This document shows, in pieces, positions 4,498-55,581 of a DNA stretch of 64,000 bases. Source of the DNA: Hydnum rufescens UP504 (Eukaryota; Basidiomycota; Agaricomycetes; Cantharellales; Hydnaceae); the NCBI GenBank assembly GCA_014904985.1, contig MU129042.1, forward strand, positions 30,058-94,057, in the 5' to 3' direction. Numbering within the stretch: the first letter of the stretch is position 1; each line of letters opens with the position of its first letter. The position numbers and the translations under genes are program-made. A model generated the notes under the pieces. That model saw only the letters and a program-made list of their open reading frames with translations, had not been told where the DNA came from and ran no database searches.

Positions 4498-5677
4498 ATG
4501 TTGTTCCTTGGCCAAAAAGCAAAAGGATTGATTAGGCGTAACAAGAAGAAATCTAAAGCCATTGCTGAGGCTGGTCCATCTAATGAGCCATCATCATCAA
4601 AATGGCGGAAGCATAACGAGGCCCCTCTCAATCTGCCCACTGTCCCCAACGATCCATACCAAGTTATCATCGGGACCCAGCTACCATCCGTCTGAAGTCT
4701 AGACCAGAGAAAACACAATGGTGTCATCTTTCTTGGAAAGGAAATGGACGGTCAAGCACTGTATCAGCAGGCTGGGCTGCCAAGTTGCCAGCATCGACAA
4801 CCATCCTTAGAGTCCATCAACACTGGCGACGATGACCCAGCTCACCCCGCCTTGGGCGATTTCTTTGACTTCGACTATGGGCTTAATGCCCTGGACTACC
4901 GCATCCCACAAGAAAACCATCCAGTCCTTCTCCAGCAAGACAATAGGCACGTCATCAAAGATAAGCAATCTTGCCACTCCCATCGACGATACGCCACTGC
5001 CCATAAATGGAATACAACTGTGCTTCCCAGTTTGCTTCATCCATACATGGCCTTCCATGTGCAAACCAACTCTGGGCGCAATGTGATGCGGACTCCCACT
5101 GAAGTAGCGGCATGTACATGTGGAACACACAGCGTCCAGCTGGAGGTTACATGTGTGCATTTAAAATGTGCATCTTTTGGTGTCTCACTGAAACCACATC
5201 CTCACATTTTTGCAGATCTAGACTCTATCGTGCTTTATTAGTGTAAATGTAGGCCAGTGCCTGAGCAACTGGTGGGACGTGGGCTCTTTCCATGTGCACC
5301 AGTCCTCCCAAAGCTTGCCATTGATCTCGATATGCTCGAGTTTGCTACTGGGCTCTTCGTTAATTCATCACCAAATGAAATGGCATGGGCGGCAACTCTC
5401 ACAGAGTTCCTTGATACTCGGGCTACATTTTTACTACTGAGGTTAGCATTCACATTCAAGCCCTTGATTGATCAAATCTAATATTTTATGGCATCAAGGA
5501 CTCATTTTGGCAACACTTTGGAATGCACTCGTGCAATATCAGGTGCTCATGCAAGTTGTTGAGGCGGAGGTCCAAAAATCTGTTGAGATCGCCGGACACT
5601 CGTTCTCACTACCGTGCTGCAACATTACCCCATCGTCTCAAGGCAGAACTTCCACCAGTTGATGGATCTACCACATT
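4498..5677 (+). pseudogene. KDZ-1 transposase, N-terminal part
   Basis: This is the 5' half of a KDZ (CxC2-like cysteine cluster) transposase. Recognisable blocks are a basic N-terminus, KWNTTVLPSLLHPYMAFHVQT followed by the CTCG/C cysteine cluster (about 5000-5150), an intron ending in a TTTTTGCAG acceptor near 5214, the block CKCRPVPEQLVGRGLFPCAP, LEFATGLFVNSSPNEMAWA, and the helical NALVQYQVLMQVVEAEVQKS block after a second intron. A TAG at 5239 lies immediately before CKCRP, and frame changes are needed near 5520 and 5610, so the gene is dead. The reading stops at 5677, where a transposon (E1) begins; the protein resumes at 21087. Removing E1 and one copy of the 8-bp duplication leaves the frame open (DGSTT then LFKHDY). 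Confidence 0.85.
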
Positions 5678-5900
5678 CAGGCTGGTCAGTCACATGGGGG
5701 ACCTAATTTAGGTACACTTTCAGGCAGAAAATGGTACCTAATAGGTCCCTCAAACCTTACAGCCGAAATCAGGCATTCCAATTCAGTTCTTTGGCCATCT
5801 ATCGGCCAATCCATGGCTGTGCTGGATTATATACTTATTTATTATTATGTATTTATTATTATTATTATTACTATTATATATACATATTATCCCCCCCCCT
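5678..5900 (+). repeat. E1 A end: TIR, terminal hairpin and TTA microsatellite
   Basis: After the 15-bp terminal repeat comes an internal inverted repeat (GGGACCTAATTTAGGTAC ... GGTACCTAATAGGTCCC) that can fold into a terminal hairpin, then sequence shared by all A ends (GGCCATCTATCGGCCAATCC), a (TTA)n tract and a C-run. The E2 (9036) and E3 (ending 17830) A ends match it closely. Confidence 0.9.
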
Positions 5901-7263
5901 GCCACCACAGGGGGACGGTTCATGCGGGTCACGCGCCCACATATACTCACCACACCGCTGTAGTGGCAGGATCCATATGCCCCAGTCAGGGACCAGTTCT
6001 GCTTGGCACCCCCTCAAGGGGGTTGCTTTTTGTTTGTGGGGGCTCGTTTGCGGTTTTCGTTTCCAGCGTGTCATTTGGCGGGTTTGTAGGGGGGTCGTGT
6101 GGGTTCTGGTCAAGGATCTAGAGAAATAAGGAATAAAATATTAGTACAACATTACTGCAGCACAAAAGAGCAGCTTATGCTGCTCTTTTTGTGCCACAAG
6201 ACCAAGAAATAAAACACTTAAAACATACCTTGTACCCCACACCTGCAGGTGTAGGGTACTGGGGCCATGCATGCTGGCTCATACATACGCCAGCTCGTAC
6301 GTACGCCGGCTCATATGCACAGCGGTTCACATGGGTCCCCCATCATTCGGGTGTCGATATGCAGGGTTACAGGGGGTTCTTTGTCAGTATTCGTTCGCGA
6401 GGGAAGTTGAAACCTACAAAATACTATGTTTAAATTAGTTAAGAAATAAGCACCATGCAAAAAGAGCAGCTTTCGCTGCTCTTTTTGCATGGCTGAAGCT
6501 ACTGGAGGGGGGGGGGAAGGGACTCACCTGATATAGAACCACACACCCACCATGGCAGGTGTGTGATTCCTGGGGCGTTATTTGATGCGGTCACACCCTC
6601 GTTTGGCATGTTGCCATGTCGCACTGTCATGTGTCGCGTTGCGGTGGTGCGCTGCTGTGTGTCACGTTGCGGTGGTGCGCTGCTGTGTGTCACGTTGCTG
6701 TGTGGCGTTGCCATATGTGGCACTGCCGTGTCGCGTTTCCATGCCTCACATTGCCGTTTGGCTCTCGTCATGCATTGGACAAGGCCTCATCTAAAATAAA
6801 TAAACACACATTAGTAAAATATTCCAAAGCAGCGCAAAAAGAGCAGCTTTTGCTGCTCTTTTTGCGCAGCTGTAGCTACTGGGGGGGTACTCACCTTACA
6901 TAGTACACACCTGCCATGGTGGGTGTGTGGCTCATTTGGCGCAGTTGTGTCCTTGTTTGGTGGGGTGCCGTATATCACGTTGCCGTGTGTCACGTCCTCG
7001 TTTGGCATGTTGCTGTTTGGTGTGTTGCTGTGTGTTGCATTGCCGTTTGGTGCGTTTCTGCATGTCGCATTGCGGTTTGGGCCCTTTTCATTTCATGGGT
7101 TCTCAAGGGCCTTGGAGCAGGCCTCAATCTAGTATAATAAATGATGTGTTAGTAAAAAAATTCAAAGCAGCGCAAAAAGAGCAGCTTTCGCTGCTCTTTT
7201 TGCACTGTTGTATCTATTGATAAAAACACTCACCTTGTGACCACACACCCGCAGCGGCGGGCG
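5901..7263 (-). repeat. E1 left array: four exon/intron-like hairpin modules, minus sense
   Basis: Intron-type stem-loops lie at about 6160-6194, 6457-6489, 6833-6868 and 7168-7202. Read on the minus strand each follows a GTGAGT/GTATGT-type donor and precedes CTAAY and a TAG acceptor. Exon-type stem-loops (ACCACACACCCGC-like) lie between them, for example at about 6238, 6540, 6903 and 7240, just upstream of the minus-strand donors. The predicted transcript runs from the centre of E1 toward its A end. Confidence 0.8.
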
Positions 7264-7324
7264 TGTGGTCATGTGGTTGCCTTTCCAGGTGGTTGCCTGT
7301 TGTGTAATGGAGATGCGGATGAAG

Positions 7325-7900
7325 ATGCAAACTCAACGCTGGCAATTGCCGGTACTTAAAAAGTGCCCAAGTGCTGGTGCTACAAACATAATACATATGA
7401 GTAGCAAGTATCTAGACATGGAATACATGCTATATAATAAATATTTGTCCAAAAATGCGAAGAAGAAGATGATAATAAGTCAGAGCTCACTAGGACATGA
7501 CATGCCTGATTGCAGGGTGGGTTGGGCCACTTCTATAGGTCAGAATTAGCCCAAATTTAAATATATTAATGGTATATATGCACCCTACATGGGTGACTGA
7601 TTATATTGGACAATCCGTCCAATATAATCAGTCGTCCATGTAGGGTGCATATATACCATTAATATATTTAAATTTGGGCTAATTCTGACCTATAGAAGTG
7701 GCCCAACCCACCCTGCAATCAGGCATGTCATGTCCTAGTGAGCTCTGACTTATTATCATCTTCTTCTTCACATTTTTGGACAAATATTTATTATATAGCA
7801 TGTATTCCATGTCTAGATACTTGCTACTAATATGTATTATGTTTGTAGCACCAGCACTTGGGTGCTTTTTGAGTACCGGCAATTGCCGGCATTGAATTGC
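7325..7900. promoter_or_regulatory. E1 central palindrome, candidate bidirectional promoter
   Basis: Nearly perfect inverted repeat centred at about 7605 (TTGGACAATCCGTCCAA). Arms of about 270 bp include GGCAATTGCC, a conserved segment starting near CACCAGCACTTGGG, and a TATA-like ATTATATAGC. Both module arrays diverge from here, so I infer a bidirectional promoter. The arms appear as identical short open frames on opposite strands, which I take as a by-product of the inverted repeat. Confidence 0.55.
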
Positions 7901-9035
7901 ACAACTACTCACACCAGCAATGGCCCCGAAAGGCGAACACACAACCACACACCCGCTGCTGTGGGTGTGTGGTCATAAGGTGAGTTTTGTCTCAGTAGGT
8001 ACAAAAAGAGTAGTGCAAGCTACTCTTTTTGTGCCACTTCGAATTCTTTTACTGACGTAGCTTTTATTATTTTAGATTATGGTGGCCTGAGACGAAAACC
8101 CACCACACAATGAGGGCCCAAATGGCAAGAGCCAAACCAAAACAAACAATGGACCACCCAATGGGTAGCCCAGGAACCACACACCCACTGTGGCGGGTGT
8201 GTGGTACTCTTTAAGGTGAGTTCCCCCCCGCCAATATATACTGTGGTGCAAAAAGAGCAGCGAAAGCTGCTCTTTTTGCGTTGCATTGGATTTTTTTACT
8301 AATACCTTTTATTATTCTAGGTCTTTGCCTGGTCCCGGTTGCCAAACGATGAGACCCCACCGGCCAGGGCCCCCACAGCAACACGCCAAACGAAGGTGTG
8401 AGAAGTGGTGATGTGAACCACACACCTGCGCAGCGGGTGTTCTATACAAGGTAAGTATGCTTATACACCCCCAACAGCACAAAAAGAGCAGCAAGTGCTG
8501 CTCTTTTTGTGCTGGTTTTAATTTTTAACTAACAATCTATTATTCTAAACTATCGCCAGACATGAAAGCCCGTGGAGCAAGCCCCCCCCCCCCAAACAAT
8601 ACCCTGTCCGCACAGCAAGGCCTGCATGCAGACAACGACGCGCCAAGCAGACAACGACAAGCCAAACGAAGACATGAAGCACACCTGCTACCGCAGGTGT
8701 GGTTCTATATGAGGTAAGCACTGTGGTGCACCCCCAACAGCGCAAAAAGGGCTGCGCTCGCTGCCCTTTTTGTGCCAATTTTAATTTTTTAATTTTTTAC
8801 TAACATCACTTATTATTCTAGGTTCTCGCCTGATCACAAACAGCAAAATGAAGACTCGCCAAATGAACCCCCCATGGAAATGAGAATGCCCTTGCCAAAT
8901 GAAAACCACAAATGCAACCCACCAAAATGAGTGCCAAATGAAACCCGCTGACGACAATGGGCCAAGGAACACCCACCAGGCAAACCGCGGGAATGGGAAC
9001 ACCACAAGACAACAGAACCCCCAGACGAACCACAC
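7901..9035 (+). repeat. E1 right array (first part): four modules, plus sense
   Basis: Intron-type stem-loops at about 8008, 8250, 8477 and 8740, with exon-type stem-loops at about 7942, 8187, 8417 and 8690. A clear unit is GGTGAGT at 8215, stem-loop, TTTACTAAT near 8298 and TTATTCTAG at 8311-8319. The array is cut at 9035 inside an exon-type stem-loop by E2 and continues at 19555. Confidence 0.8.
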
Positions 9036-9250
9036 CAGGCTGGTCAGTCACGGGGGGGACCTAATTTAGGTACCACTTTTGGGCAGAAAATGGTACCTAA
9101 GAGGTCCCCCAAACCTTATGGCTGAAATCAGCCATTTCAATTCAGTTTTTGGGCCATCTGTCAGCCAATCCATGGCTGTGCTAGATTATTTATTATTATT
9201 ATTATTATTATTACTACTATTATTATATACATATTATCCCCCCCGGGGTC
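9036..9250 (+). repeat. E2 A end: TIR, terminal hairpin and TTA microsatellite
   Basis: Matches the E1 A end closely. The terminal inverted pair GGGACCTAATTTAGGTACC / GGTACCTAAGAGGTCCC forms a hairpin of about 17-19 bp. A (TTA)n tract lies at 9187-9235. Confidence 0.9.
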
Positions 9251-10640
9251 TGCCACCACAGGGGGGGGGGCGTGGTTCCTGCGGGTCACACACCTGCATA
9301 TACCCACCACACCCGCCGCAGCAGGTGGGGTTCATATGCCCCGGTCGGGGCTGGTTCCATTTGGGTGCTCCCTTGAGGGAGCAGGTTTTCGTTTGCGGGG
9401 GCTCATTCACGGTTTGTGTTCCCAGGGTGTCATTTGGCGGGTTCAGGGGGGGTTTGTGCGGGTTCTGGTCAAGGGTCTATAGAAATAAGGGATTCAATGT
9501 TAGTACAACATTAATGCAACACAAAAAGAGCAGCTTATGCTGCTCTTTTTGCACCACAAGACTAAGAAATAAAAAAAAAACATAACACATACCTTGTACC
9601 CCACACCTGCAGGTGTAGGGTACTGGGACCGTGCACACCGGCTCATCCATATGCCGGTGTGTACATATGCCGGCTCGTACGCATGGCGGTTTGTATGGGT
9701 CCTCCGTCGTTTGGGGGTCGATAGGCAGGGTTATGTGGGGTTCTTTGTCAGTATTCGTTCGCGAGGGCAGTTGAAACCTACAAAATATTATTTTTAAATT
9801 AGTTAGAAAATAAGGGCCATGCAAAAAGAGCAGCTTTCACTGCTCTTTTTGCGTGGCTGTAGCTACTGAGGGGGGCAGGGACTTACCTGATATAGAACCA
9901 CACACCCACTGGGGCAGGTGTGTGATTCCGTGCCCTTGTTTGGCGCACTGCTGTGGGCTTTGGTGCAGTCGTGTCATTGGCCCATTGCTGTGTCGCATTG
10001 GTGTATCGCATTGCTGTGTCGCGTTGCCATGTGGCACGTCGCTGTTTGGGCTTTCGTCATTTCATGGGTTATTGTCCTGCGTTGGATGGGCCCTAATCTG
10101 GAATAATGCATGTCAGTAAAGAAAAAATTCCAAAGCAGCACAAAAAGAGCAGCTTTCACTGCTCTTTTTGCGTGCCTGTAGCTACTGGGGGGGGGACTCA
10201 CATTATATAGTACCACACACCCGCCGTGGCGGGTGTGTGGTTCCTGGGGGCCTCATTTGGCGCGTTGCCGTAGGTTGCGTTGCCATGTGTCGCATTACCG
10301 TGTATCGCGTCTTCGTTTGGCGCATCTTCATTTGGTGTGTTGCCGTGTTGCGCCGTCGTGCGTCATGTTTCTGTGTCATGTTGCCGGATGTCGCGTTGCT
10401 GCGTCGTGTTTCCATATGTCACATGGCTGTTTGGGCTCTCATTGTGCGTTGGATGAGGCCTCAATCTAAAATAAATAAAGAGACATTAGTAAGATGTTCC
10501 AAAGCAGTGCAAAAAGAGCAGCTTTGCTGCTCTTTTTGCGCCGTTGTATCTACTAGAAAAAATACTCACCTTGTGACCACACACCTGCAGTGGCAGGTGC
10601 GTGGTCATGTGGTTGCCTTTTCAGGCAGTTGCTTGTTGTG
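9251..10640 (-). repeat. E2 left array: four modules, minus sense
   Basis: Intron-type stem-loops at about 9520, 9820, 10138 and 10507; exon-type at about 9310, 9600, 9900, 10205 and 10580. Two of the four intron loops are GAAA on the minus strand with a U-G wobble at the loop-closing region (plus strand reads CAGCTTTCACTG). Confidence 0.8.
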
Positions 10641-10659
10641 GTTGCAGAGATAGGAAGCA

Positions 10660-11320
10660 AGATGCAGATTCAATGCCGGCAATTGCCGATACTCAAGAAG
10701 CACCCAAACGCTGGTGCTGCAAGCACAGTACACAATAGTACCAAGCATATATATTATAGATGAATACTATATAATAAAATTTTGTCCAGGAAAACCCGAA
10801 GAAGAGGATGGTAATGAGTCAGAGCTCAATAAGGCATGAGATGGCTAATTACAGAGTGGATTGGGCCACTTCTACACATCAGAATTGGCCCAAATTTGAG
10901 TATAGTAGTGTTATATATACACTCTACATGGGCGATTAATTATCTCGGACAATTTTCACATTTTTCAATTTTTCACACCTTCAATTCCCTATTTAGGGAA
11001 TTGAAGGCGTGAAAAATTGAAAAATGCAAGGATCGTCCGAGATAATCAATTGCCCATGTAGAGTGTATATATAAACTACTATATTTAAATTTGGGCCAAT
11101 TCAGATGCATAGAAGTGGCCCAATCCACTCTGCAATTTGCCGTCTCATGCCTTATTGGGCTCTGACTCATTATCATTGCCTTCTTTGGGTTTTCCTGGAC
11201 AAATATTCATTATATAGTATTTATTTTAAATATACATGTTTGGTACTATTGTGTGCTGTGCTTGCAGCACCAGCGCTTGGGCGCTTCTTGAGTATCGGCA
11301 ATTGCCAGCATTGAATTCGC
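10660..11320. promoter_or_regulatory. E2 central palindrome, candidate bidirectional promoter
   Basis: Inverted repeat centred near 10993, with a core hairpin around TTCAATTCCCTATTTAGGGAATTGAA. The arms contain GGCAATTGCC (about 10678 and 11298) and a TATATAGTATTTATT motif about 30-40 bp upstream of the conserved first-exon start on each side. Confidence 0.55.
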
Positions 11321-11363
11321 AACTATGCAGCCACACCCAGCAACAGAAATGCAACTGCGCGAC

Positions 11364-11379
11364 CACGACACAACAGCAA

Positions 11380-11414
<35 letters not shown>

Positions 11415-11439
11415 ACAGCAGCAGCAGCAACAGCAACAG

Positions 11440-11519
<80 letters not shown>

Positions 11520-11600
11520 GCAGCAACAGCACACGACCACAACCGCATGACCACAACCGCATGACCACAACCGCATGACCACAACCACACGACCACAACC
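11364..11600 (+). repeat. (CAR)n microsatellite plus 14-bp tandem repeat in the E2 first exon
   Basis: About 155 bp of CAG/CAA triplets (11373-11530), followed by about five copies of a 14-bp unit (AACCGCATGACCAC). It lies between the conserved first-exon start and the first exon-type stem-loop of the right array, so it would be in the first exon of the predicted rightward transcript. It is open as poly-Gln in one frame, but no coding evidence exists beyond that. Confidence 0.85.
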
Positions 11601-11641
11601 ACATGACCACACACCCGCTGATGCGGGTGTGTGGTCATAAG

Positions 11642-11743
11642 GTACGTTTTGTCTCAGTAGATACAATAGTGCAAAAGAGTAGCGCAAGCTACTCTTTTTG
11701 TGCTGCTATGAATTTTATACTAACATAGCCTTTATTATTCCAG
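11642..11743 (+). other. Example predicted intron with internal stem-loop (102 bp)
   Basis: Donor GTACGT, stem-loop with GCAA loop (GAGTAGCGCAAGCTACTC), branch-like ATACTAACAT and TTATTATTCCAG acceptor. The following exon-like segment (11744-11823, 80 bp) ends in an ACCACACCCGC stem-loop and then AAG|GTGAGT. Confidence 0.65.
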
Positions 11744-11823
11744 GTCAAAACCAAAACAAATGACAGGCCACCCAATGAGTGGGCTCAGGAACCACACCCG
11801 CTGCTGCAGGTGTGGTACTGTAA

Positions 11824-11928
11824 GGTGAGTCTCCTCCCCCCCAATAGATGCAGCCGCACAAAAAGAGCAGCGAAAGCTGCTCTTTTTGCGTCACTTTACA
11901 TTTTTTAACTAATATTATTTGATTATAG
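11824..11928 (+). other. Example predicted intron with internal stem-loop (105 bp)
   Basis: Donor GTGAGT, stem-loop with GAAA tetraloop (GAGCAGCGAAAGCTGCTC), branch-like TTTAACTAAT and GATTATAG acceptor. Spacing is the same as in the preceding unit. Confidence 0.65.
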
Positions 11929-12592
11929 GTATTGCCACAAATGAAGACCCATGAAGCAACCCCCAGAATGATAACATGCCCACAAACGGGATCCACAAAT
12001 GACGACACGCCACACAAAGAGACAAACTACACACCCGCAGTAGCGGGTGTGTGGTTCTATACTTGATATGTACCCCTGACAATGCAAAAAGAGCAGCGAA
12101 AGCTGCTCTTTTTGCATCACTTTTAATTATTTTTAACTAATGATTTTTTATTCTAGATATTGTCACAAAGGCAGAGCCCCAAAACAACCCCTCGACAGAA
12201 CAAAAATACCCCCGCAAACGATGATGCAGCATGAAGAGAACCACCCACCCGCAGTAGCAGGTGTGTGGTTCTATGCCGGTATGTAATGTTCCCCTGACGA
12301 CACAAAAAGAGCGGCAAAAGCTGCTCTTTTTGTGTCACTTTTAATTTTTTAACTAATGATTTTTTATTCTAGGTACAGTATTGTCACAAATGAAGACTGA
12401 AGACCCGCAAAGCAAGCCCCCCCACAATGATAACACGCCCGCAAAGGGGACCCCCGAACGACGACGTGCCAGAACCACACCCGCCGAAGTGGGTGTGGGG
12501 TAATTTTAAGGTGAGCATATAACCACGCAAGAGGAGCAGCGTACGCTGCTCCTTTTGCATGGCTTTTCTTTTTTCCTTTTTACTAATGTATT

Positions 12593-12900
12593 CACCTTGG
12601 TCAGTCATCTAAGCCTACCTAGTTAGGTACCACTTCCAGGGCAGATAATGGTACCTAAGTAGGTCCCATCACTATTTCGGCCGAAATGGCCATTTTTATG
12701 ATTTCACCTCCTCGCCCAGAATTGGCCGAAATGGCTGAAAATTGGCTGAAAATTGGCCGAAACTGGGACTTAGAGAATCTCAGACTTGCAGCAGGCCATA
12801 CGGGCTTATTGGGGATAACATGTTCCATTTATAATTATTTATTTATTTATTATCACTGCTACCCCCAGTCAGTGGGGTTTAATTCGGCAGTTCTGTTTTA
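12593..12900 (+). repeat. E3 B end: TIR, terminal hairpin and TTGGCCGAAA subterminal repeats
   Basis: After the terminal repeat come the hairpin arms CTAGTTAGGTACC / GGTACCTAAGTAGG. Tandem variants of AATTGGCCGAAA (about 12720-12770) follow, then GACTTAGAGAATCTCAGACTTG and GGCCATACGGGCTTATTGG, all shared with the B ends of E1, E2 and (diverged) E4. The subterminal repeats may be transposase-binding sites; that is inference. Confidence 0.88.
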
Positions 12901-12944
12901 TTCTTACTGAGTTGTTTATTTTTTATTTATTTATTTATTTAAAA

Positions 12945-15300
12945 AGTCACCACACTCACTGAGGTGTGGTACCATCCGTAGAAATTTAAAATAAAATATA
13001 AAAAAAACTATCTAGTGGCACCACACCCGCTTAGGCGGGTGTGGTACCGTCCGTAGAAACTTATAAACAAAAAACTATGTAGTAGTACCACACCTGCTTG
13101 GGCAGGTGTGGTCGGGGGTGCGGCTTGGCACTTCACCGTTGGGTGCGGGTTGCCATTGGGGTAGGTCGTCATTTCGGGGGTTTCAATTTGGATCCTAGAA
13201 TCATACTGTATGTTAGTAAAAAAAAATTGAAGTGATGCAAAAGGAGCAGCTTGTGCTGCTCCTTTTGCATCATTGCACATATAGAAATTTGAAAAAAAAA
13301 CCTTTGTAGTACCACACACCCACCGAAGTGGGTATATGGTACTGTTTTGTACCAGCTGGGCATCATTTTGGGGGTTCGCAGGCGTCCGTTCTCACGGCTG
13401 TCTTTGGCGGGGTCGCGGGTCTTTGATTTGGGGGTTAGTGCAGGTGGTAGGCTCAGGTGAAAATCTAGGAATAAATAACGTGTTAGTAAAGAAAAAATAA
13501 AAAAAGAAAGCCACGCAAAAGGAGCAGCATACGCTGCTCCTCTTGCGCGATTGTACTTATCTTGAAATTACCACACACCCGCTTCAGCGGGTGTGTGGTT
13601 CGTCCGGGGTCCCTGGACCTTGCGTCGTGCGTCCCCGTTTCTGGGTTTCGATTTGGCGGGTCGTGTTTGGGACTCTCCGTTGGCGGGTGCGTTGTCATTT
13701 CCAAAGGGGGGGGGGGTTTCATTTGGCGGTAGTTCAGGCGAGAACCTAGAACCTAGAATAATGAATTTGTTAGTTAAAAATAAAAATGGATGCAAAAAGA
13801 GCAGCAAGGCTGCTCTTTTTGCGCCCTTGGGGATGCATTACTTACCTTGTATAGAACCACACACCCGCGATGGCAGGTGTGTGGTTCGTACCAGTTTTGG
13901 CATCGTCCCGTGTCTTCGTTTGGCGCGTCGTCGTTCGCGGGCATGTTATCGTTTGGGTGGGGGTCGCACCGCGGGTCTTCATTTGTATTTGTGGTGATAC
14001 CTAGAGTAAAGATTTATTAATTAAAAAATTAAAAGCGACGCAAAAAGAGCAGCTTTCGCTGCTCTTTTTGCGCCACAGTATCTATTGAAGGGGGGGAACT
14101 CACCTGAACTAGTACCACACCCCCGCCGAAGCGGGTGTGTGGTACTCCCTTTGCACCCTGGTCACGTACTTGGTTCTGTACGGGGGGGCTGGTCGTCACT
14201 TGGGCAGGTGTGTTGTTTCGCGGGTCTCGGTTCAGATCCTAGAGTGAGAATGTCAATTAGTAAAAAAAATTCAAAGTGACGCAAAGGGAGCAGCTTACGC
14301 TGCTCCTTTTGCATCGTTGTACATATAGAAATCAAAAAAAATAAAATAAAAACCTTGTAGGACCACACCCACTGAAGTGGGTGTGGTCCTTGGTTTGTAC
14401 CGCGGTCGTGCGGTTCGTACTCGGTACGGGGCTTGGTCGTCATGTTGGGGGTTTGAACTCTCACGGGTTTCGTTTGGCGGGTCCGTTGCCGTTCTCGTGT
14501 GTTTGCTTGGTGGGGTTGTGGGTTCAGACAACCTAAAATAATGTATAATACGTTAGTAAAAAGGAAAAAAGAAAAGCCACGCAAAAGGAGCAGCGTACGC
14601 TGCTCCTTTTGCGTGGTTATATGCTCACCTTAAAATTACCACACACCCGCTCGAGCGGGTGTGTGGTTCGTCTCTTCGTGTGGCACGTCGTCGTTCAGGG
14701 GTCCCCTCTGCGGGCGTGTTATCGTTGTGGGGGGCTTGCTTTGTGGGTCTTCAGTCTTCATTTGTGACAATACTGTACCTAGAATAAAAAATCATTAGTT
14801 AAAAAGAATTAAAAGCGACACAAAAAGAGCAGCTTTCGCTGCTCTTTTTGCGTCATCGGGGGTGCATTACATGCCTTGTATAGATAGAACCACACACCCA
14901 CAGTAGCAGGTGTGTGGTTCATCTCTTCATTCGCGGGTCTCCTTTGTGGGCGGGCTTGCTGCTTGGGTCTTCATTTATGGCAATACCTAGAATAAAATAT
15001 AATTAGTTACAAAATTAAAAGCAATGCAAAAGAGAGGCTTTCCCGCTCTTTTGTGCGGCTGCATCTATTAGGGGGGGGGAGACTCACCTTAAATAGAACC
15101 ACACCCGCCGCAGCGGGTGTGGTTCCTGGGCTCACTCAACTGGGCGGCCTGTTTGTTTTGTTTGTTTTGATCTGGAGGAATAGAGGCTACGATATAAAAA
15201 TTCATGGCAGCGCAAAAAGAGTAGCTTGCGCTACTCTTTTGCGGTATTGTATTTACTGAGACAAAACTTACCTCATAACCAACACACCCGCATCAGCGGG
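12945..15300 (-). repeat. E3 left array: nine modules, minus sense
   Basis: Intron-type stem-loops at about 13235, 13515, 13790, 14040, 14280, 14580, 14818, 15025 (decayed, with an AGAGAGGC core) and 15210. Exon-type stem-loops at about 12948, 13019, 13087, 13310, 13572, 13855, 14113, 14363, 14640, 14890, 15098 and 15283. The three nearest the B end are packed about 70 bp apart without intron-type partners, as at the B ends of E1 and E2. Confidence 0.8.
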
Positions 15301-15327
15301 TGTGTGGTCATGCGGTCGGCGGTCGTG

Positions 15328-15455
15328 CACTGTTGCTGCTGCTGTTGCAGCAGCTGCAGCAGCTGCAGCTGCTGCAGCAGCTGCAGCAGCTGTTGCTGCT
15401 GTTGCTGCTGTTGTTGCTGTTGTTGCTGTTGTTGCTGTTGTTGCTGTTGCTGTTG
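15328..15455 (-). repeat. (CTG/TTG)n microsatellite in the E3 first exon
   Basis: About 125 bp of CTG, CAG-CTG and TTG triplets. On the minus strand it is a CAR-rich tract in the same position as the CAR tract of E2, between the conserved first-exon start and the first exon-type stem-loop. In E2 it lies in the right arm, in E3 in the left arm. Confidence 0.85.
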
Positions 15456-15499
15456 TGTCGTGGTTGTGCGGTCGCTTGCTGGGTGTGGCTGTGTAGAGT

Positions 15500-15920
15500 T
15501 CGAAATTCAACACCGGCAATTGCTGATACTCAAGAAGCGCCCAAGCGCTGGTGCTGCAAGCACAGTACACAATAGTACCAAGCATGTATATTATAAATAA
15601 ATACTATATAATAAAAAATTGTCCAGGAAAACCTGAAGAAGAGGATGGTAATGAGTCAGAGGTCAATAAGGCATGAGATGGCTAATTACAGAGTGGATTG
15701 GGCCAATTCTGATGCGTAGAAGTGGCCCAATCCACTCTGTAATTAGCCATCTCATGCCTTATTGACCTCTGACTCATTACCATCCTCTTCTTCAGGTTTT
15801 CCTGGACAATTTTTTATTATATAGTATTTATTTATAATATACATGCTTGGTACTATTGTGTACTGTGCTTGCAGCGCCAGCGCTTGGGCACTTCTTGAGT
15901 ATCGGCAATTGCCAGTGTTG
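15500..15920. promoter_or_regulatory. E3 central palindrome, candidate bidirectional promoter
   Basis: Inverted repeat centred near 15715; the arms are almost identical from GGCAATTGC (15512 and 15905) inward, including ATTATATAGTATTTATT and CATGCTTGGTACTATTGTG. It has the same architecture as the centres of E1, E2 and E4, but without the extra core hairpin of E2 and E4. Confidence 0.55.
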
Positions 15921-15939
15921 AATCTGCATCTTGCTTCCT

Positions 15940-17560
15940 ATCTCCGCAACCACAACAAGCAACCGCCCAAAAAGGCAACCGCATGACCATGCACCCGCCA
16001 CTGTGGGTGTGTGGTCACAAGGTGAGTATTTTTTCTAGTAGATACAACGGCACAAAAAGAGCAGCGAAAGCTGCTCTTTTTGCGCTGCTTTGGAACATCT
16101 TACTAACGTCTCTTTATTTATTTTAGGTTGAGGCCTCGTCCAACGCATGATGAGAGCCCAAACAGCCATGGGACATACGGAAACACGACGCAGCAACATG
16201 ACATCCGGCAACACGACACAGAAATGCGATGCACGACAGTGCAACACGGCAACGCGCCAAACGGCAACGCGCCAAATGAAGATGCGACACATGGTAATGC
16301 GACACACAGCAACCCAACCTACGGCAACGCGCCAAACAAGCACACAACCGCGCCAAATGAGGCCCCCAGGAACCACACACCCGCCACGGCAGGTGTGTGG
16401 TACTATATAATGTGAGTCCCCCCCCCCAGTAACTACAGGCACGCAAAAAGAGCAGCGAAAGCTGCTCTTTTTGCATGGTCTTTAACTCTTAACTAACATA
16501 TAATCTTATATTCCAGGTCACCACTTCCCGCACGAACGAATACCTATGCAAGAACCCCCATAACCCCGCCCGTCGACACCCGAACGAGGGGACCCGTACA
16601 AACCGCTGCACATGTGAGCTGGAGTATGGCTCCAGTACCCCACACCCGCTGGAGCGGGTGTGGGGTACTACAAAGTAAGATTTCTTTTCGTTTTTTTATT
16701 CTTGTGGTGCAAAAAGAGCAACGTAAGCTGCTCTTTTTGCGCTGCTTTGGAATTTTTTTTTTACTGATGTGCATTATTCTATATTGCGGCCCCTCCAACG
16801 CAGGACGATAACCCACGAAACGACAAGAGCCCAAACAGCGATGTGCCACACAGCAACGCGACATGGCAATGCGATACACGGCAACACAATACACCAACGT
16901 GACACAGCAATGGGCCAACGACGCGACTGCACCAAAGCCCACGGCAACGCACCAAACGAGGGCACGGAATCACACACCCACCCCGGCGGGTGTGTGGTTC
17001 TATATCAGGTAAGTCCCCACCCTCCTCAGTACCTACAGCCATGCAAAAAGAGCAGCGAAAGCTGCTCTTTTTGCGTGGTTTTTGATTCTAACTAATTTAA
17101 AAACTTTATCTCACAGGTCTCAATGCCCCCGCAAATGAATACCAACACAAAACCCCTGTGCCCCCCGTATTGACGCCCAAATGACGGACATCCGTAGGAA
17201 CCGCCGTATGTACACGGGCTCAGTACCCCACACCGCTGCAGCAGGTGTGGGGTACTAGGAGGTATGTTTTATTTTTATAAATTTCTTCTTGTGGCACAAA
17301 AAGAGCAGCATAAGCTGCTCTTTTTGCGCTGCATTAATATTCAACTAATGTTTCCTTAATTATTTCTTTAGATCCTAGGCCAGAACCCGGGCGAACTCCC
17401 GAATACAAATCCGCCGAACGACATCGCCGACGATAACCACGAACGAGCCTGTGAATGAAAACCGGCCCCCTTGAGGGAGCACCCAAATGGAGCCGGCCCC
17501 CAATCGGGGTGTGTGAACCCCACCCACTGCAGCGGGTGTGGTGGGTATATGCAGGTGCAT
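15940..17560 (+). repeat. E3 right array: five modules, plus sense
   Basis: Intron-type stem-loops at about 16050, 16440, 16708, 17042 and 17295; four of the five loops are GNRA (GAAA three times, GTAA once). The exon-like segment about 16127-16408 is unusually long (about 280 bp) and consists of repeated CAACGCGCCAAAYGR motifs. Exon-type stem-loops at about 15990, 16374, 16638, 16972, 17227 and 17516. Confidence 0.82.
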
Positions 17561-17830
17561 GACCCGCATCAACCATCCCCCCCTGTGGTGGCAGACCCCG
17601 GGGGGATAATATGTATATAGTGTAATATGTATATAATAATAGTAGTAATAATAATAATAATAATAAATAAGTATATAATCTAGCACAGCCATGGATTGGC
17701 CGACAGATGGCCCAAAAACTGAATTGGAATAGCCTGATTTCGGCCGTAAGGTTTGGGGGACCTATTAGGTACCATTTTCTGCCCCGAAAGTGGTACCTAA
17801 ATTAGGTCCCCTATGTGACTGACCAGCCTG
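17561..17830 (-). repeat. E3 A end
   Basis: Reverse complement of the E1/E2 A ends: C-run boundary, (TTA)n tract (about 17625-17680), CATGGATTGGCCGACAGATG, terminal hairpin with GGTACC arms, and CTGACCAGCCTG at 17819-17830. Confidence 0.9.
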
Positions 17831-19340
17831 AACGTATTGTATGTTATTTTAGGTTGTCTGAACCCATGACCCCACCAAGCAAACACACAAGAACAGCAAC
17901 GGACCCACCAAATGAAACCCGCAAGGGTTCAAACCCCCAACATGACGACCAAGCCCCGTACCGAGTACGAACCGCATGACCACAGTACAAACCAAGGACC
18001 ACACCCACTTCAGTGGGTGTGGTCCTACAAGGCTTTCATTTTTTTTATTTGATTTCTATATGTACAATAACGCAAAAGGAGCAGCGCAAGCTGCTCCCTT
18101 TGCATCACTCTGAATTTTTTTACTAATCGAGAGTCCAACTGAAGCCATGCCAAAAGAAAACCCGATGAACGCACCACCAAACCCCGCCGAACGAAAAACC
18201 AATGCAAACCAGACACCTGCCATGGCGGGCGTCTGGTACTATTTAAGGGAGGCGATTTTCCCATATCCAACAGTGCAAAAAGAGCAGCGAAAGCTGCTCT
18301 TTTTGTGTCGCTTTTAATTTTTTAACTAATAATTGTTCATTCTAGGTATCGCTGCAAATGAAGACCCGTGAAGCCCCGCCAGAATGACAACATCCCCGTG
18401 AACAATGATGCGCCAAACACAGAGACGAACCACACACCCGCAGTAGCAGGTGTGTGGTTCTATACAAGGTATGTAATGTAACACACCCCCAATGGCGCAA
18501 AAAGAGCTGCGAAGGCAGCTCTTTTTGTGTCATGTTAACTTGTACTGATCTAAATTTTTGTATTCTAGATCTTCCTTCCCCCCAAACGAGTATGTGCCCG
18601 AAACCCCCCCAACCCACCTGAGAACTGTACGGAAAACTGGCAGTCGAAGGTATGCAACCCGGACAACAATGAGTACCACACCCCCACCAATGCGGGTATG
18701 TGGTACTACAAGGTATTTTTTTTAAACTTTCTACATCTACAGTGACGCCAAAGGAGCAGCGCAAGCTGCCCCTTTGGCATCACTTTGAATTTTTTTTTAC
18801 TAATGTTCATTATCATTCAATTCTAGGATTGAATTTGAAGCTCCCGAAATGAAGACAACAGACAGCCGCAACCCCCAAATGACCTGCACAACAGTGAACC
18901 GCCAAGCCAAGCCCGCCCAAATGGCCACCGACGAGCTGGGTGAGCCCCCATCCAAGCCCCAAGGCAGCAATGCCCAGTACCACATGCCCCCCTCAGCGGG
19001 GGTGTGGTACAAAAGGTCTGTTTTTTAACTTAATATTTTGCTGCCCGACACCCCAGCAACATGCCCCCTGAACCTGCATCTGAACACTGGATGACCCCCC
19101 GTCCAAAGTCTCAAGGAAGCAACAGATGGTACCACACCTGCCCTAGCGGGTGTGGTATGTTTTTTTAATTGAATTTTTAAATAAATAAATACATAAGTTG
19201 ATAAAAAAACATGAGACTGCCAAATGAAAACAGCCCCCACCTGGGGTGAGTGATAATGATAATAAATAAATAACTATAAATGAAACACCAGAGGGGGGAA
19301 TATAATAATAAATACAGGTGATTATCCCCAATAAGCCCGC
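17831..19340 (+). repeat. E2 right array (second part): four more modules
   Basis: This continues the intron interrupted at 12592. Intron-type stem-loops at about 18070, 18270, 18495 and 18745 (loops GCAA, GAAA, GAAG, GCAA). The last exon-type stem-loops (about 18982 and 19130) lack intron-type partners, and an AAATAAAT tract follows. Confidence 0.8.
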
Positions 19341-19554
19341 ATGGCCCGCTGTCCTGCAAGTCTGAGATGCTCTCTAAGTCCCAGTTTCGGCCAATTTTCG
19401 GCCAATTTTCGGCCATTTTGGCCAATTCTGAGCCAGAAGGTGCAGACCATAAAATGGCCATTTTGGCCGGAATAGTGATGGGACCTACTTAGGTACCATT
19501 ATCTGCCCCAAAAGTGGTACCTAACTAGGTAGGCTTAGATGACTGACCAAGGTG
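19341..19554 (-). repeat. E2 B end
   Basis: Reverse complement of the E3 B end: CTAAGTCCCAGTTTCGGCC, tandem TTTTCGGCCAA units, GGTACC hairpin arms and GACTGACCAAGGTG at 19541-19554. Confidence 0.9.
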
Positions 19555-20770
19555 ACCACACACCTGCTTCGGTGGGTGTGTGGTAATTTTAAGTTAAGTA
19601 TTTCTTATGTATAAATACAATTGCGCCAAAGGAGCAGCATATGCTGCTCCTTTGGCAAAGCTCTTTCTCTTTTTTTTTTTTTCTTTTCGCTAACATATTA
19701 TTTATTTATTATCCAGTTCCAGGTTCCAATCTAAACCCACGACCCCGCCAAAAAAGACCTGTGAACAGCAACCGCGATGCAACTCACCACACCCAACCAG
19801 CAAACCGAGGGAAAATGGGCCAGACCACACACCCACTGTGTGGTCATCCAAGGTGAGTTTCATTCCCATAGATACAGTGGCGCAAAAAGAGCAGTGAAAG
19901 CTGCTCTTTTTGTGTCGCTTTAACTGTTTACTGATCTAAAATTTTTTATTCTAGATCTTGCTTCCCCCCTGAACGAGTATGTGCCCAAAAACCACCAACC
20001 TACCTGAGCACTGTACAGAAATCCAACAGTCGAAGGTGTGTGACCCCAGGCAATAACGAGTACCACACCTGCTTTGGCGGGTGTGTGGGAAAAAAAAAAC
20101 TTCAGTGACGCAAAAGGAGCAGCGCAAGCTGCTCCTTTTGCGTCATTTCAAACTTTTTTACTAACATAAGTTATTATTCTAGGATGGAATTTGAAGATCC
20201 CAAAATGACAACACCCCAACGGACACCTGCGATCCGTCCAAATGACCCACCTAACAGTGAACCACCAAGGCACACCCCCCCAAAACAGCGGCTGGTGAGC
20301 TGGCTGAATCCCGGTCCAAGTCCCCCAAGGCAGCAATGCCCAGTACCACACCCGCTGAGGGGGGTGTGGTACAAAGGTGTGTCTTTTTTTTTGTTTCAGT
20401 TTAGCAAGTGGCACAGAAAGAGCAGCATGAGCTGCCCTTTCCGCGCCAAGCTAAGCTTTTTTTTTTTAATTCTAGGTTATCGTACAATAGATACTGCCCA
20501 TGACATCTCCCCCCTTCGAAAACTGGCCGAACCCCTGATGAAGCAAGGGAAGGTACCACACACCTGCTTGGCAGGTGTGGTGCTACTAGATATATATATA
20601 TGTATTTAAATTTCTATGGATGGTAACCACACCTGCCCAAGTGGCTGTGGTGTTTTTTTTTGTTTTTTTTTTTTTGATTTCTATGGACAGTACCACACAC
20701 CCGCTAGAGCGGGTGTGTGGTGCTACCATTTTTAAATAAATAAATAAATAAATAAATAAACAAGTAATGA
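19555..20770 (+). repeat. E1 right array (second part): four more modules and terminal exon-type stem-loops
   Basis: The exon-type stem-loop split by E2 is completed here. Intron-type stem-loops at about 19624, 19880, 20108 and 20411. Three exon-type stem-loops at about 20557, 20625 and 20693 follow without intron partners, then an (AAAT)n tract at 20728-20762. The first donor here is TTAAGT, probably a decayed GTAAGT. Confidence 0.8.
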
Positions 20771-20859
20771 ACCATGGGACTGCTGAATGAAACCCTGTTG
20801 ACCCCAGGTAGCCTATGCATAATATAGTGATAATAAATAAATAATTATAAATGGATCAC

Positions 20860-21086
20860 ATTATCCCCGATAAGCCCATATGGCCCACTGCAAGTCTGAG
20901 ATTCTCTAAGTCCCAGTTTCAGCCAATTTTCAGCCAATTTTCAGCCATTTCAGCCAATTCTGGGCCAGGAGGTGAAATCATAAAAATGGCCATTTCGGCC
21001 GAAATAGTCATGGGACCTACTTAGGTACCATTATCTGCCCCGGAAGTGGTACCTAACTAGGTAGGCTTAGATGACTGACCAAGGTG
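20860..21086 (-). repeat. E1 B end
   Basis: Same organisation as the E2 and E3 B ends: CTAAGTCCCAGTTTCAGCC, tandem TTTTCAGCCAA units, GGTACC hairpin arms, and a final GACTGACCAAGGTG followed by the TSD ACCACATT. Confidence 0.9.
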
Positions 21087-22668
21087 ACCACATTATTCAA
21101 GCACGATTATCTCAACAGCCAGAGTAATGATGGACACATTCCACAATCCAAATCTGGTGAGCCACAACAGCACCCCAGCGCCTATCTTCATTCCCGGTGC
21201 CCTCTCTGCTTTGGAGGATGACCTCCAGTTCCTCAAGAGAACACATCAGTCTATTCCTAATTTGTGGTGTGATGTTGTCCTAATATTCATCGTTGCAGTC
21301 CACACGTCGTTGTTTGCATAGATGCCAATTTCCAACAGAAGCAGAACCATGATAAAGACCATCAAAAAGGGCACGAGAAGGATGAGGGGATGAGAGATCC
21401 GCCCCTATTCAGTCCCTGCTCTGTCCAAGTCTCCAAAGCTTATCTGAAGGATTGGGAGGCGAAGGTCAATGGTATTCGAAACTATCCACTTACTACCAAG
21501 GCTGGTTCGAAGCATAAGGCTGGCAAGATGGTTGAGTCTGACTCAAACGCAACAGATGCTGAGGACCGATGCAAGCCTGGGATGCCTATTCCCAATTCAT
21601 GCACTGACTTGTGTGGTGAGTCATTTATTGCAGCTGACAGCAATCATGTCAAGGCTTCGACTATGTACTTTTCTGACACCAGCATGATGGCCATGCTGTG
21701 TCGCCACAATATAGTTCTTTACTGGGCCAACATGTGGACAGCCGGTGAAAAACAGTTCTTTGCTTTGGCATTGCTGGCCGCTCTCATGGCCGAGCTCCTG
21801 GTGGATTGGACAGTTGGGTTCTTATATGACATAGCGTGCCAGATGCACCGAAGTCTAATCAAGTGGGACTTCTTGCCCCAGTTTCTCCTGTGACTCCTGT
21901 TCGCCATATCAGTTTTTCATGCTTATGGCCACCAATGGGTGTGCCAATTGTGGTATCACCCATGTAAGGCTGGAATCTGGGGTCTCTCAGATGGAGAGGG
22001 CTGTGAGCAGTTTTGGAGTATGCTTCGCGACTCATTCCAGGCATGCATGTCACTGGAGTGAGTTTTCACCATTTAGTGTACACTATCTATACTAACGGTC
22101 CTCCAATCCTAGTATCATTGCCGCCTATTCGTCCTGAACCTCCAGATCACCCACATTCACCAAACACAGTTGTTCGGTCTGGGCGAATGGCTTCAGCGAC
22201 ACATCACGAAAACAACAAAACATCTAATGGATGTTTCTCCGAAGCTCGAGGCTTGTGGCCACTCTTCTGACTTTCTGCATCAGCAGTTCACCCAGCAATG
22301 AAAATATCAGAGTAGGCCTCTTACCCGTAAGTGCTCCTTAAACCTTCAGCATGAGTGCCCACTGTAATGTACCTTGGATAGGCCAATCAAAAATAGCAGT
22401 ATCAAGGCCATCGAGAAGATTGTTGCATTATGGGAATCTGTGTCAACAATCAAGACGGCGATTGCCAAGCTTGAGAGCAAGCTGATGAAATATGTCCTGA
22501 TGGATTCTATCACTGTTAGCAGCACTTGCTTCAACATATTGACAAGTATTGAAGCAAAGGCTCATGTTCTCATTTGTCTTCAGAAAGACATTGATGCTGT
22601 GACGAACTACCTCAATCTTCATGACAAGACTTCTGCAGCCAGGCTGAACAAGATCAAAGGGGAACTGT
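21087..22668 (+). pseudogene. KDZ-1 transposase, C-terminal part
   Basis: This continues the protein broken at 5677. Blocks in order: SAYLHSRCPLCFGG (CxxC), then after a frame change LWCDVV and an intron VCIDANFQQK; RDPPLFSPCSV; GMPIPNSCTDLCGESFIAADS; STMYFSDTSMMAMLCRHN; MWTAGEKQFFALALL; DWTVGFLYDIACQMHRSLIKW; FAISVFHAYGHQWVCQLWYHP; LSDGEGCEQFWSMLRD; an intron with GTGAGT donor at about 22059; YHCRLFVLNLQI; and a C-terminal coiled coil (22374-22668). These are the conserved KDZ motifs around the catalytic acidic residues. Stops and frame changes near 21225, 21893 and 22300 inactivate it. The tail is cut at 22668 by an LTR fragment. Confidence 0.87.
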
Positions 22669-34496: not shown

Positions 34497-34770
34497 CAAC
34501 CTGGTCAGCCACAAATATACATCTAGTTAGATACAATGAGCCTTGCGTTTAAATAGTCTAACTAGATGTTTTTAGGTGGGGGCCCTGGGGCCTCCAGGGG
34601 TGATTTCGGACCCTTAGACAAGGGGCCCCAGGGGCCTCTGGCTCTGAACTTAAAAAAATTCACCAAAATTGAGACTTAGAGAATCAAGACTTAGACAGCT
34701 GCCCCCAAGCAGGTCAACAGGCCATATGGGCTTATTGGCAACTATGATTATTTACTTATTATTGTTGATT
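34497..34770 (+). repeat. E4 B end with diverged terminal hairpin
   Basis: The terminal hairpin is a perfect 13-bp pair ACATCTAGTTAGA (34519) / TCTAACTAGATGT (34557), different in sequence from the GGTACC hairpin of E1-E3. A GGGGCCY-rich palindromic stretch follows, then GACTTAGAGAATC and GGCCATATGGGCTTATTGG shared with the other B ends. Confidence 0.85.
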
Positions 34771-34984
34771 CTCATACATATTATTATTATACAAGTATTA
34801 TACACATCTATCTACCCTCAGCCTCACCTCAATCGTGTGTTTTCGTTCAGGGCTTTGCTTGGCAGGTCTTTAGTCATGGGTTTTGGTAAGACAGGTGTTC
34901 ATTCAGCAGGTTTCCATGTAGGGGGTTTCGGCTGGGCTCATGCAGGTGTTGGTTCATCAGATTGTGGCCTAAAATAATAAGATA

Positions 34985-36860: not shown

Positions 36861-36864
36861 GTGC

Positions 36865-37445
36865 AATTCAACACTGGCAATTGCCGGTAATCAAAAGCGC
36901 CCAAGTTGCTACAAGCAGAATACATGTTAGTAACAAATATCTAGACATGGACTGAATACTATATAATAAATATTTATCCAAAAATGTGAAGAATATGATG
37001 AAAATAAGTCAGAGCTCAATAAGGCATGCCTAATTGTTAAGTGGATTGGGCGACTTCCATGGTTCAGAATTGGCCCAAATTTAAATATATTGGTGGTATA
37101 GATAAACCCTACATGAGCGATTGATTATTCCAGACGATCCTTCCATTTTTTAAAAATTTTTTGCACCTTCAATTCCCTATTTAAGGAATTGAAGGCGCAA
37201 AAAATTAAAAAGTGAAAGGATCGTCCAAGATAATCAATCACTCATGTAGGGTTTATCTATACCACCAATATATTTAAATTTGGGCTAATTCTGAACCATA
37301 GAAGTCGCCCAATCCACTTTGCAATTAGGCATCTCGTGCCTTACTGAGCTCTGACTTACTATCGTCGTCTTCTTCACATTTTTGGACTAATATTATTATA
37401 TATTATTTATTTCATGTCTAGTTACTTGCTATTAATTTGTGGCAC
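36865..37445. promoter_or_regulatory. E4 central palindrome (right arm split by the 1.56-kb repeat)
   Basis: Centre at about 37175 with a core hairpin TTCAATTCCCTATTTAAGGAATTGAA, very like the E2 core. The arms hold GGCAATTGCC (36874; the partner at about 39045 lies beyond the insertion) and ATTATATA motifs. Confidence 0.55.
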
Positions 37446-39007: not shown

Positions 39008-39011
39008 GCGC

Positions 39012-40800: not shown

Positions 40801-40854
40801 CCACTGGGCGAGCCTATGGATGTATATACTAATATAATAATAATAAATTAATTA

Positions 40855-40993
40855 ATAATGCATAATCTGGCAGGGGCCCCTAGATTGTATTGCAGGGGCC
40901 CCCAGGGGCCCCTCCTGTAAACATCTAGTTAGATATAATAAATGCAATGCTCATTATATCTAATATGATGCGGAAAAGTGGCTGACCAGCCTG
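40855..40993 (-). repeat. E4 A end
   Basis: GGGGCCC-rich stretch, an imperfect terminal hairpin (CATCTAGTTAGATATAAT / ATTATATCTAATATGATG) and GTGGCTGACCAGCCTG at 40978-40993. Confidence 0.85.
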
Positions 40994-48548: not shown

Positions 48549-48590
48549 GTATTCTCGATCTAAATAACTGACTTCCTTGAAAGACTCAAT

Positions 48591-55430: not shown

Positions 55431-55581
55431 CGATGATGATGGTATGGAATCAGAAGCGAATGTGACAAACCCGCCCTTTATAGTAACCACCACGGCAACC
55501 GCCAAAACCACCAAAAAAACACCCACCTCATAAAACTCGAGTTATGTGCTTCGAGGGCTTCACGCTCAAAGGGGGGGGTAC

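What the first reader, a model, noticed from the sequence alone, without database searches (positions are those of the whole stretch)
5678..21086. A family of ~5-kb transposons built of divergent exon/intron-like hairpin modules
Four bounded copies (E1, E2, E3, E4) and one partial copy share GGTCAGYCA-type terminal repeats, 7-8-bp TSDs, asymmetric A and B ends, a terminal hairpin inside each end, a central palindrome and two diverging arrays of modules. Each module combines an ACCACACACCCGC/GCGGGTGTGTGGT stem-loop, a splice-donor motif, a GCAAAAAGAGCAGC/GCTGCTCTTTTTGC stem-loop, a CTAAY motif and a TAG acceptor. I know of no described superfamily with this build. After removing nested inserts the sizes are consistent (about 4.88, 5.27, 5.24 and 4.93 kb).
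Basis: partly seen in the sequence, partly recalled or inferred. Interest (0 to 1): 0.92.

Follow-up and report, generated by a model that had tools for sequence, protein, structure and literature searches.

The report
Mushroom transposons packed with hairpin-bearing introns
In a hedgehog mushroom's genome, a large family of jumping DNA pieces uses the ends of a known transposon group but carries, instead of a gene, two opposite rows of look-alike hairpins and intron-like units whose purpose is unknown.

Summary
E1 (5678-21086), E2 (9036-19554, inside E1), E3 (12593-17830, inside E2) and E4 (34497-40993) are bounded elements ending in CAGGCTGGTCAGYCA and CACCTTGGTCAGTCA (E4: CAACCTGGTCAGCCA). 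Of 16 end pairs examined, 6 have exact 7-bp and 2 exact 8-bp TSDs, E3 has 8 bp with one mismatch, and 7 have none.

The host is taken to be Hydnum rufescens UP504. The genome holds 207 exact A-end cores and 3193 hairpin-2 sites; the control patterns give 0.

It is not a new superfamily. The A end is shared with KDZ-transposase elements of the same genome, with the KDZ domain at near-constant distances from it, while E4-type elements share only the outer ~100 bp. Kyakuja's reported 7-bp TSDs and CA..TG termini fit.

The interior is the novelty: two diverging arrays of consensus-type introns and exons, each with a covarying hairpin, apparently non-coding. Recent copies differ mainly by CpG decay. 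Transcription, splicing and function are inferred. I file it as a new variant of a known kind.

The parts
5678..21086 (-). Element E1 (A end left, B end right), 15409 bp with E2 inside
   Evidence: ends and 8-bp TSD ACCACATT
9036..19554 (-). Element E2, nested in a hairpin-1 arm of E1, with E3 inside
   Evidence: ends and 7-bp TSD ACCACAC
12593..17830 (+). Element E3, nested in a predicted intron of E2, uninterrupted, 5238 bp
   Evidence: ends; TSD AATGTATT/AACGTATT, one mismatch
34497..40993 (+). Element E4, of a related family with different subterminal sequence
   Evidence: ends and 8-bp TSD CAAGGAGC; array similarity to E3
63781..64000 (+). Partial copy running off the window (79% to part of the E3 left array)
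7330..7898 (.). Central palindrome of E1 (282-nt arms, 5-nt spacer, 96%)
   Evidence: I2
10660..11324 (.). Central inverted repeat of E2 (250-nt arms, 165-nt spacer, 88%)
   Evidence: I5
15505..15923 (.). Central palindrome of E3 (206-nt arms, 7-nt spacer, 98%)
   Evidence: I6
13195..14897 (-). E3 left array: 7 predicted introns with hairpin 2, exons with hairpin 1
16022..17371 (+). E3 right array: 5 predicted introns with hairpin 2, exons with hairpin 1
34969..36776 (-). E4 left array: 7 predicted introns
39191..40525 (+). E4 right array: 4 predicted introns
4696..5238 (+). ORF left of E1, probably the other part of the KDZ gene that E1 interrupts; no Pfam match itself
   Evidence: inference from position
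21273..21890 (+). KDZ transposase domain fragment right of E1: the insertion target, not part of E1
   Evidence: PF18758 E 1.2e-25

Best explanation
Non-autonomous KDZ-type DNA transposons. A KDZ transposase from other copies recognises the shared terminal region, excises the element and inserts it with a 7-8 bp duplication. SHOWN: bounded copies with TSDs; an A end shared with KDZ-encoding elements; ends far better conserved between subfamilies than the interior; no kept reading frame; decay dominated by CpG changes. INFERRED: mobilisation in trans; outward transcription from the central palindrome; splicing. On this reading each element makes two diverging non-coding RNAs: exons carry hairpin 1 just before a donor, and introns of about 109 nt carry hairpin 2, which when folded out (18 bp plus a 4-nt loop) leaves about 69 nt. 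What the RNA does is open; my weakly held guess is that well-spliced structured RNA helps the element escape silencing.
For: TSDs and ends. KDZ domains sit 1.56-2.70 kb inside copies of the L035 A end for 7 domains, five of them at 1749-1794 bp, and 1.88-2.48 kb inside a second end type for 11 domains, six at 1903-1909 bp (compared by hand). Side and orientation control: 6 pairs (5 domains) in the expected arrangement, 1, 0 and 0 in the other three. 23 of 41 matches to the KDZ A end stop at 73-102 nt, E4 and L032 among them. Terminal 230 nt differ 4.5% and 6.2% in two between-subfamily pairs against 21-22% in exons and 17-20% in introns. Covarying stems in both family groups. Gaps and frames. 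CpG decay. Kyakuja: 7-bp TSD and CA..TG termini (PMC12730594 section 3.2.1, read).
Against: The B end of no KDZ element was reached, so sharing is shown for one end only. For E1-E3 only the outer ~15 nt (CAGGCTGGTCAGYCA) and a similar subterminal motif link to KDZ ends; the longer match is for E4-type elements. 7 of 16 end pairs lack a TSD. Kyakuja is said to have no TIRs, while A and B ends here match at 79-80% over about 91 nt in inverted orientation. No RNA evidence. RNA-versus-DNA tests of the hairpins only lean one way.
Confidence: 0.78

Rival explanations
1. Same transposon, but the array has no present function: an intron-bearing segment that grew by unit duplication and rides along with the ends.
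For: Recent copies vary almost neutrally once CpG is set aside: exons 45 of 3090 columns, introns 24 of 2466 (p = 0.11), centre 32 of 3425. Number and order of modules differ between copies.
Against: Between subfamilies hairpins differ 10-12% against 17-22% for exons and introns, though hairpins are CpG-rich; stems covary in both family groups; the same two-hairpin and splice-signal register is present in families with different ends.
Confidence: 0.45
2. A coding element: the arrays encode a repetitive, intron-rich protein.
For: Six annotated Hydnum proteins match a joined two-exon translation and some of their joins fall at predicted intron borders (P0121, P0122, by eye). Open frames exceed shuffles: 43 in 45 exons of four copies against about 35 expected, right arms 16 against 10 (summed by hand). 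Exon gaps are multiples of three in 66 of 304, introns 17 of 151.
Against: 238 of 304 exon gaps under 60 nt are not multiples of three (12 overlapping pairs pooled); homologous exons differ in phase; exons are the fastest-changing part. No Pfam match for P0121-P0124. All six hits are Hydnum only.
Confidence: 0.05
3. Dispersed introner-like elements: each module is itself a mobile intron.
For: Near-identical intron-like units with stems in very high number.
Against: Six sites were opened as seemingly isolated or thinly clustered: five hold array modules and the sixth (L033) is a lone hairpin beside an element end without splice signals. Six of 3193 sites is a small sample.
Confidence: 0.04
4. 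Mobilised by another superfamily with 7-8 bp TSDs, such as hAT.
For: TSD length and CA ends also fit hAT, and 7-bp hAT7 families exist in rusts (PMC12730594, passages).
Against: The A end is found on KDZ elements in the expected place. hAT transposases were not searched for.
Confidence: 0.1

Closest known systems
Kyakuja (KDZ) DNA transposons, e.g. Kyakuja-1_LB of Laccaria bicolor (PMC12730594)
   Same: 7-bp TSDs in 6 of 8 exact cases, CA..TG termini, KDZ transposase on elements sharing the A end
   Different: No transposase inside; intron/hairpin arrays; ~91 nt of imperfect terminal inverted similarity where Kyakuja is said to have no TIRs
Zisupton and Dileera (KDZ)
   Same: 8-bp TSDs as in E1 and E4
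   Different: Most exact TSDs here are 7 bp; which KDZ branch the partner belongs to was not tested
Non-autonomous DNA elements of mushrooms, e.g. MarorhAT-4/-11/-12 of Marasmius oreades (PMC9674265, passages)
   Same: Share ends with an autonomous relative and lack a transposase
   Different: Those are hAT and about 0.6 kb; these are ~5 kb with patterned arrays
Introner-like elements and repeated stwintrons of fungi (listing; details recalled)
   Same: Many similar spliceosomal-type introns, often with stems
   Different: Here in arrays inside a transposon with exon hairpins; not found as single introns in the six sites opened

Membership tests
KDZ / Kyakuja transposon (as mobilised element) | 7-bp TSD (Kyakuja) or 8-bp (Zisupton, Dileera) | tested here: met
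   6 exact at 7 bp, 2 at 8 bp, 1 with a mismatch, 7 without, of 16 pairs
KDZ / Kyakuja transposon (as mobilised element) | 5'-CA..TG-3' termini | tested here: met
KDZ / Kyakuja transposon (as mobilised element) | A end shared with KDZ-encoding elements | tested here: met
   100-nt match for E4 type, outer ~15 nt plus similar motif for E1-E3
KDZ / Kyakuja transposon (as mobilised element) | B end shared with KDZ-encoding elements | tested here: inconclusive
KDZ / Kyakuja transposon (as mobilised element) | No TIRs (reported for Kyakuja) | tested here: not met
   A and B ends 79-80% alike over ~91 nt, inverted; descriptive feature of two published families rather than a definition
Autonomous KDZ transposon | Encodes a KDZ transposase | tested here: inconclusive
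   No conserved frame in the arrays; interiors were not scanned with the KDZ model as a whole, but no KDZ match falls inside window E1-E4
Introner-like element | Single mobile introns inserted in unrelated genes | tested here: not met
   0 of 6 opened sites; small sample
Protein-coding gene | Reading frame kept between copies | tested here: not met
Known structured RNA family (Rfam 15) | Match above the curated score | tested here: not met
   0 matches in window 5000-41200
hAT element | Ends shared with a hAT-encoding element | not tested
   no hAT search was made
Any Repbase/Dfam family | Database match | not testable with these tools
   libraries not held

The most novel reading that the evidence does not exclude
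A DNA transposon whose selfish function is carried by RNA instead of protein: two diverging transcripts in which strings of hairpin-bearing introns are spliced out and structured exons remain, the splicing or the hairpin RNA shielding the element (or its KDZ partner) from methylation- or RNA-based silencing.
Probability: 0.2. Interest if true: 0.85.

Novelty: new variant of a known kind. Interest (0 to 1): 0.6.

Why it matters
If the arrays are transcribed and spliced, a transposon has built its interior from introns and hairpins alone, in thousands of units, and whether introns shield or expose transposons to silencing becomes testable within one genome. Even if they are passengers, this is an abundant repeat that no search here found described, partly annotated as hypothetical proteins, and it shows that non-autonomous KDZ-type elements can be long and internally patterned.

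Tried and rejected
Landing-pad idea: E2 and L027 sit in the same place of a hairpin 1 (L013b too, without TSD), but 0 of 40 further A-end flanks do; dropped as a general rule. Coding: see rivals. Selection on introns in recent copies: the raw contrast (exons about 3-6%, introns about 0.5-1% in close pairs of the main group) is largely a CpG effect; after a strict filter p = 0.11, though transversions alone give p = 0.008; not claimed. RNA versus DNA by wobble pairs: too small to decide. GNRA loops as proof of RNA: 110 of 266 against 3, but 104 of the 110 are in the E1-E3 family and 6 of 42 in others against 2 antisense; downgraded to shared ancestry in the main. Intron-free copies: 85 partial junction hits; 5 full-length ones, of which 3 come from a false intron running into the E3 end and 2 are 75-77% with gaps; none accepted. 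Relatives elsewhere: four viral contigs carry hairpin 2 once each, without hairpin 1, between phage genes; judged unrelated. A KDZ B end at L081:8241 was discarded because L082 runs on past that point.

Rows dropped: of 16 end pairs 12 were aligned (E1, E2, E4 and L010 left out), 10 copies used (L014, L028 left out) and 9. Pairs overlap, so one event can count more than once. One search used 71 KDZ entries copied by hand and the 100 A ends listed of 207. The intron scan is fuzzy and gives some false introns in the window outside arrays (21157, 22267, 23040) and at 12511-12604.
Full report
WHAT IS THERE. The four elements are real: E1 5678-21086, E2 9036-19554, E3 12593-17830, E4 34497-40993. 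E2 sits in a hairpin-1 arm of E1 and E3 in a predicted intron of E2. Over 16 end pairs (4 in the window, 12 in fetched loci; 8 other loci gave no pair) 6 have an exact 7-bp and 2 an exact 8-bp duplication, E3 has 8 bp with one mismatch and 7 have none. E1 itself interrupts a KDZ transposase gene (PF18758 at 21273-21890; the ORF at 4696-5238 has no Pfam match and is assigned by position).

ABUNDANCE AND HOST. The A-end core GTGACTGACCAGCCTG has 207 exact sites (98 + 109) and hairpin 2 with up to one mismatch 3193 sites; the reversed controls give 0. A KDZ fragment (L036) finds proteins named Hydnum rufescens UP504 at up to 94% identity; one Hydnum protein is on a contig of 618593 bases, the length of this genome's C4. 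The host is therefore taken to be Hydnum rufescens UP504 (a hedgehog mushroom of the Cantharellales: recalled).

THE PARTNER. At least 154 KDZ domain matches are in the genome. KDZ element L035 begins CAGGCTGGTCAGTCACTTTTGCCCATCATATTAGATATAATG; E4's A end reads CAGGCTGGTCAGCCACTTTTCCGCATCATATTAGATATAA. With the first 300 nt of L035 as query, 41 matches were scored: 16 cover 275-300 nt, one 203 nt, one is internal, and 23 stop at 73-102 nt with 84-93% identity. Two of those 23 are known to be array elements (E4 and L032); 21 were not opened. Comparing listings by hand, 7 KDZ domains lie inside such ends at 1794, 1794, 1785, 1773, 1749, 1557 and 2699 bp. For a second end type (L035:4510) 11 domains lie 1882-2477 bp inside, six at 1903-1909 bp; two of these were opened and do begin CAGGCTGGTCAGCCA (L081, L082) and the KDZ domain was confirmed in L081. 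A control over 71 hand-copied KDZ entries and the 100 listed A ends gives 6 pairs (5 domains) within 6 kb in the expected side and orientation and 1, 0 and 0 in the other arrangements. This is the relation expected of autonomous and non-autonomous elements. Kyakuja in Laccaria has 7-bp TSDs and CA..TG termini (PMC12730594: section 3.2.1 read; other passages). Against: KDZ B ends were not reached, E1-E3 share only the outermost ~15 nt and a similar motif with KDZ ends, and hAT was not searched.

THE INTERIOR. From the central palindrome two arrays run outward. On the outward strand a module reads: A/C-rich stretch, hairpin 1 (ACCACACACCCGC-loop-GCGGGTGTGTGGT), donor, hairpin 2 (GCAAAAAGAGCAGC-loop-GCTGCTCTTTTTGC), CTAAY or TTAAY, acceptor. 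Orientation was set from splice signals alone. Hairpin 1 was found before 200 of 266 unique modules; GTRNGT lies 6-10 nt after its stem in 103 of the 200, and in 80 none was seen in the 45 nt scanned. 362 introns were predicted (not made unique), median 109 nt, 10-90% range 95-127, branch motif to AG median 19 nt. Hairpin 2 stems covary outside the search seed: E1-E3 family 1916 of 2464 cells Watson-Crick against 1612 (sd 18) with arms shuffled; other families 345 of 462 against 292 (sd 8). Modules are related, so these z-scores are not probabilities.

CODING OR NOT. 238 of 304 exon gaps under 60 nt are not multiples of three (12 overlapping pairs; introns 134 of 151), homologous exons differ in phase, and exons change fastest. 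Results the other way: exons have a somewhat higher share of three-fold gaps than introns (22% against 11%) and 43 open frames in 45 exons against about 35 in shuffles (hand sum), mostly in right arms. Six annotated Hydnum proteins match a two-exon translation, and some joins in P0121 and P0122 fall at predicted borders. Gene finders use the same signals, so this is weak support for splicing and none for a protein.

AGEING. Close copies differ at 19-30% of CpG positions and 0.4-1.0% elsewhere, depending on the part, as expected from cytosine methylation and deamination. Introns are poor in CpG, so their apparent conservation is mostly this effect: with a strict filter, exons 45 of 3090 columns, introns 24 of 2466 (p = 0.11), terminal 230 nt 5 of 1144 (p = 0.006 against exons); transversions alone give exon over intron p = 0.008. 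Between subfamilies (L011-L021 and L012-L021) terminal regions differ 4.5 and 6.2%, hairpins 10-12%, introns 17-20%, exons 21-22%. Ends, then hairpins, are what lasts.

RNA OR DNA HAIRPINS. G-U against A-C observed/expected: 0.73 and 0.63 (hairpin 2), 0.81 and 0.69 (hairpin 1). Hairpin 2 loops are GNRA in 110 of 266 sense and 3 antisense, but 104 are in the E1-E3 family (of 224) and 6 in others (of 42, against 2 antisense). Hairpin 1 loops are UNCG in 26 of 158 sense against 4 antisense in the E1-E3 family and 8 of 29 against 2 in others. Predicted RNA stability favours sense in 163 of 266 (antisense 102) and 114 of 187 (antisense 62). This leans towards RNA on the strand the splice signals predict and is not proof; d(GCGAAAGC) is also a stable DNA hairpin (recalled).

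HOW IT PROBABLY WORKS. KDZ transposase in trans moves the element by its ends (inferred). The central palindrome would start transcription both ways (inferred, no promoter evidence). Folding out hairpin 2 (18 bp, 4-nt loop) leaves a median 69 nt of intron (arithmetic). The benefit is unknown: shielding from silencing is a guess, prompted by links between splicing and transposon silencing in Cryptococcus (search listing only); passenger arrays are about as likely.

NOVELTY. Seven searches of open-licence full texts found no description; one paper holds both 'Hydnum rufescens' and 'transposable elements' (listing only). Mushroom papers on non-autonomous hAT and on KDZ were seen as passages; the latter says KDZ end motifs are in a supplement that was not seen. 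I file it as a new variant of a known kind. On re-checking the calls I raised the passenger-array rival from 0.35 to 0.45, since the report itself calls the two about equally likely.

Noticed in passing
genome-wide: At least 154 KDZ transposase matches, many with long open frames: a large KDZ expansion in this genome.
   Followed up: partly
loci L010, L011, L012, L013, L014, L017, L022: Seven of 16 end pairs have no TSD although most look intact; recombination between copies, assembly joins or unusual transposition could explain it.
   Followed up: partly
window 19555-19584 and L027 7075: E2 and L027 inserted at the same position of a hairpin 1 with the same 7-bp TSD; not seen in 40 other A-end flanks.
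   Followed up: yes
P0121-P0126: Public annotation holds six hypothetical Hydnum proteins that derive from these arrays.
   Followed up: partly
window 11341-11573 and 15321-15475: CAG/CTG-type triplet tracts beside the centres of E2 and E3.
   Followed up: no
L036 5481-6020: Minisatellite inside an array exon, reading THENATHED-like repeats.
   Followed up: no
L033 1290-1350: Lone hairpin 2 right beside a GGTCAGCCA-type element end, without splice signals.
   Followed up: no
L035 5669-6115: Ulp1-type (Peptidase_C48) protease fragment close to KDZ-type ends.
   Followed up: no
L077-L080: Phage contigs with the same GAGCAGC/GCTGCTC palindrome between genes, probably an independent terminator.
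   Followed up: partly
window 48564-56790: Retrotransposon remains; RNase H-like domains of reverse transcriptase in the ORF 51744-52787.
   Followed up: no
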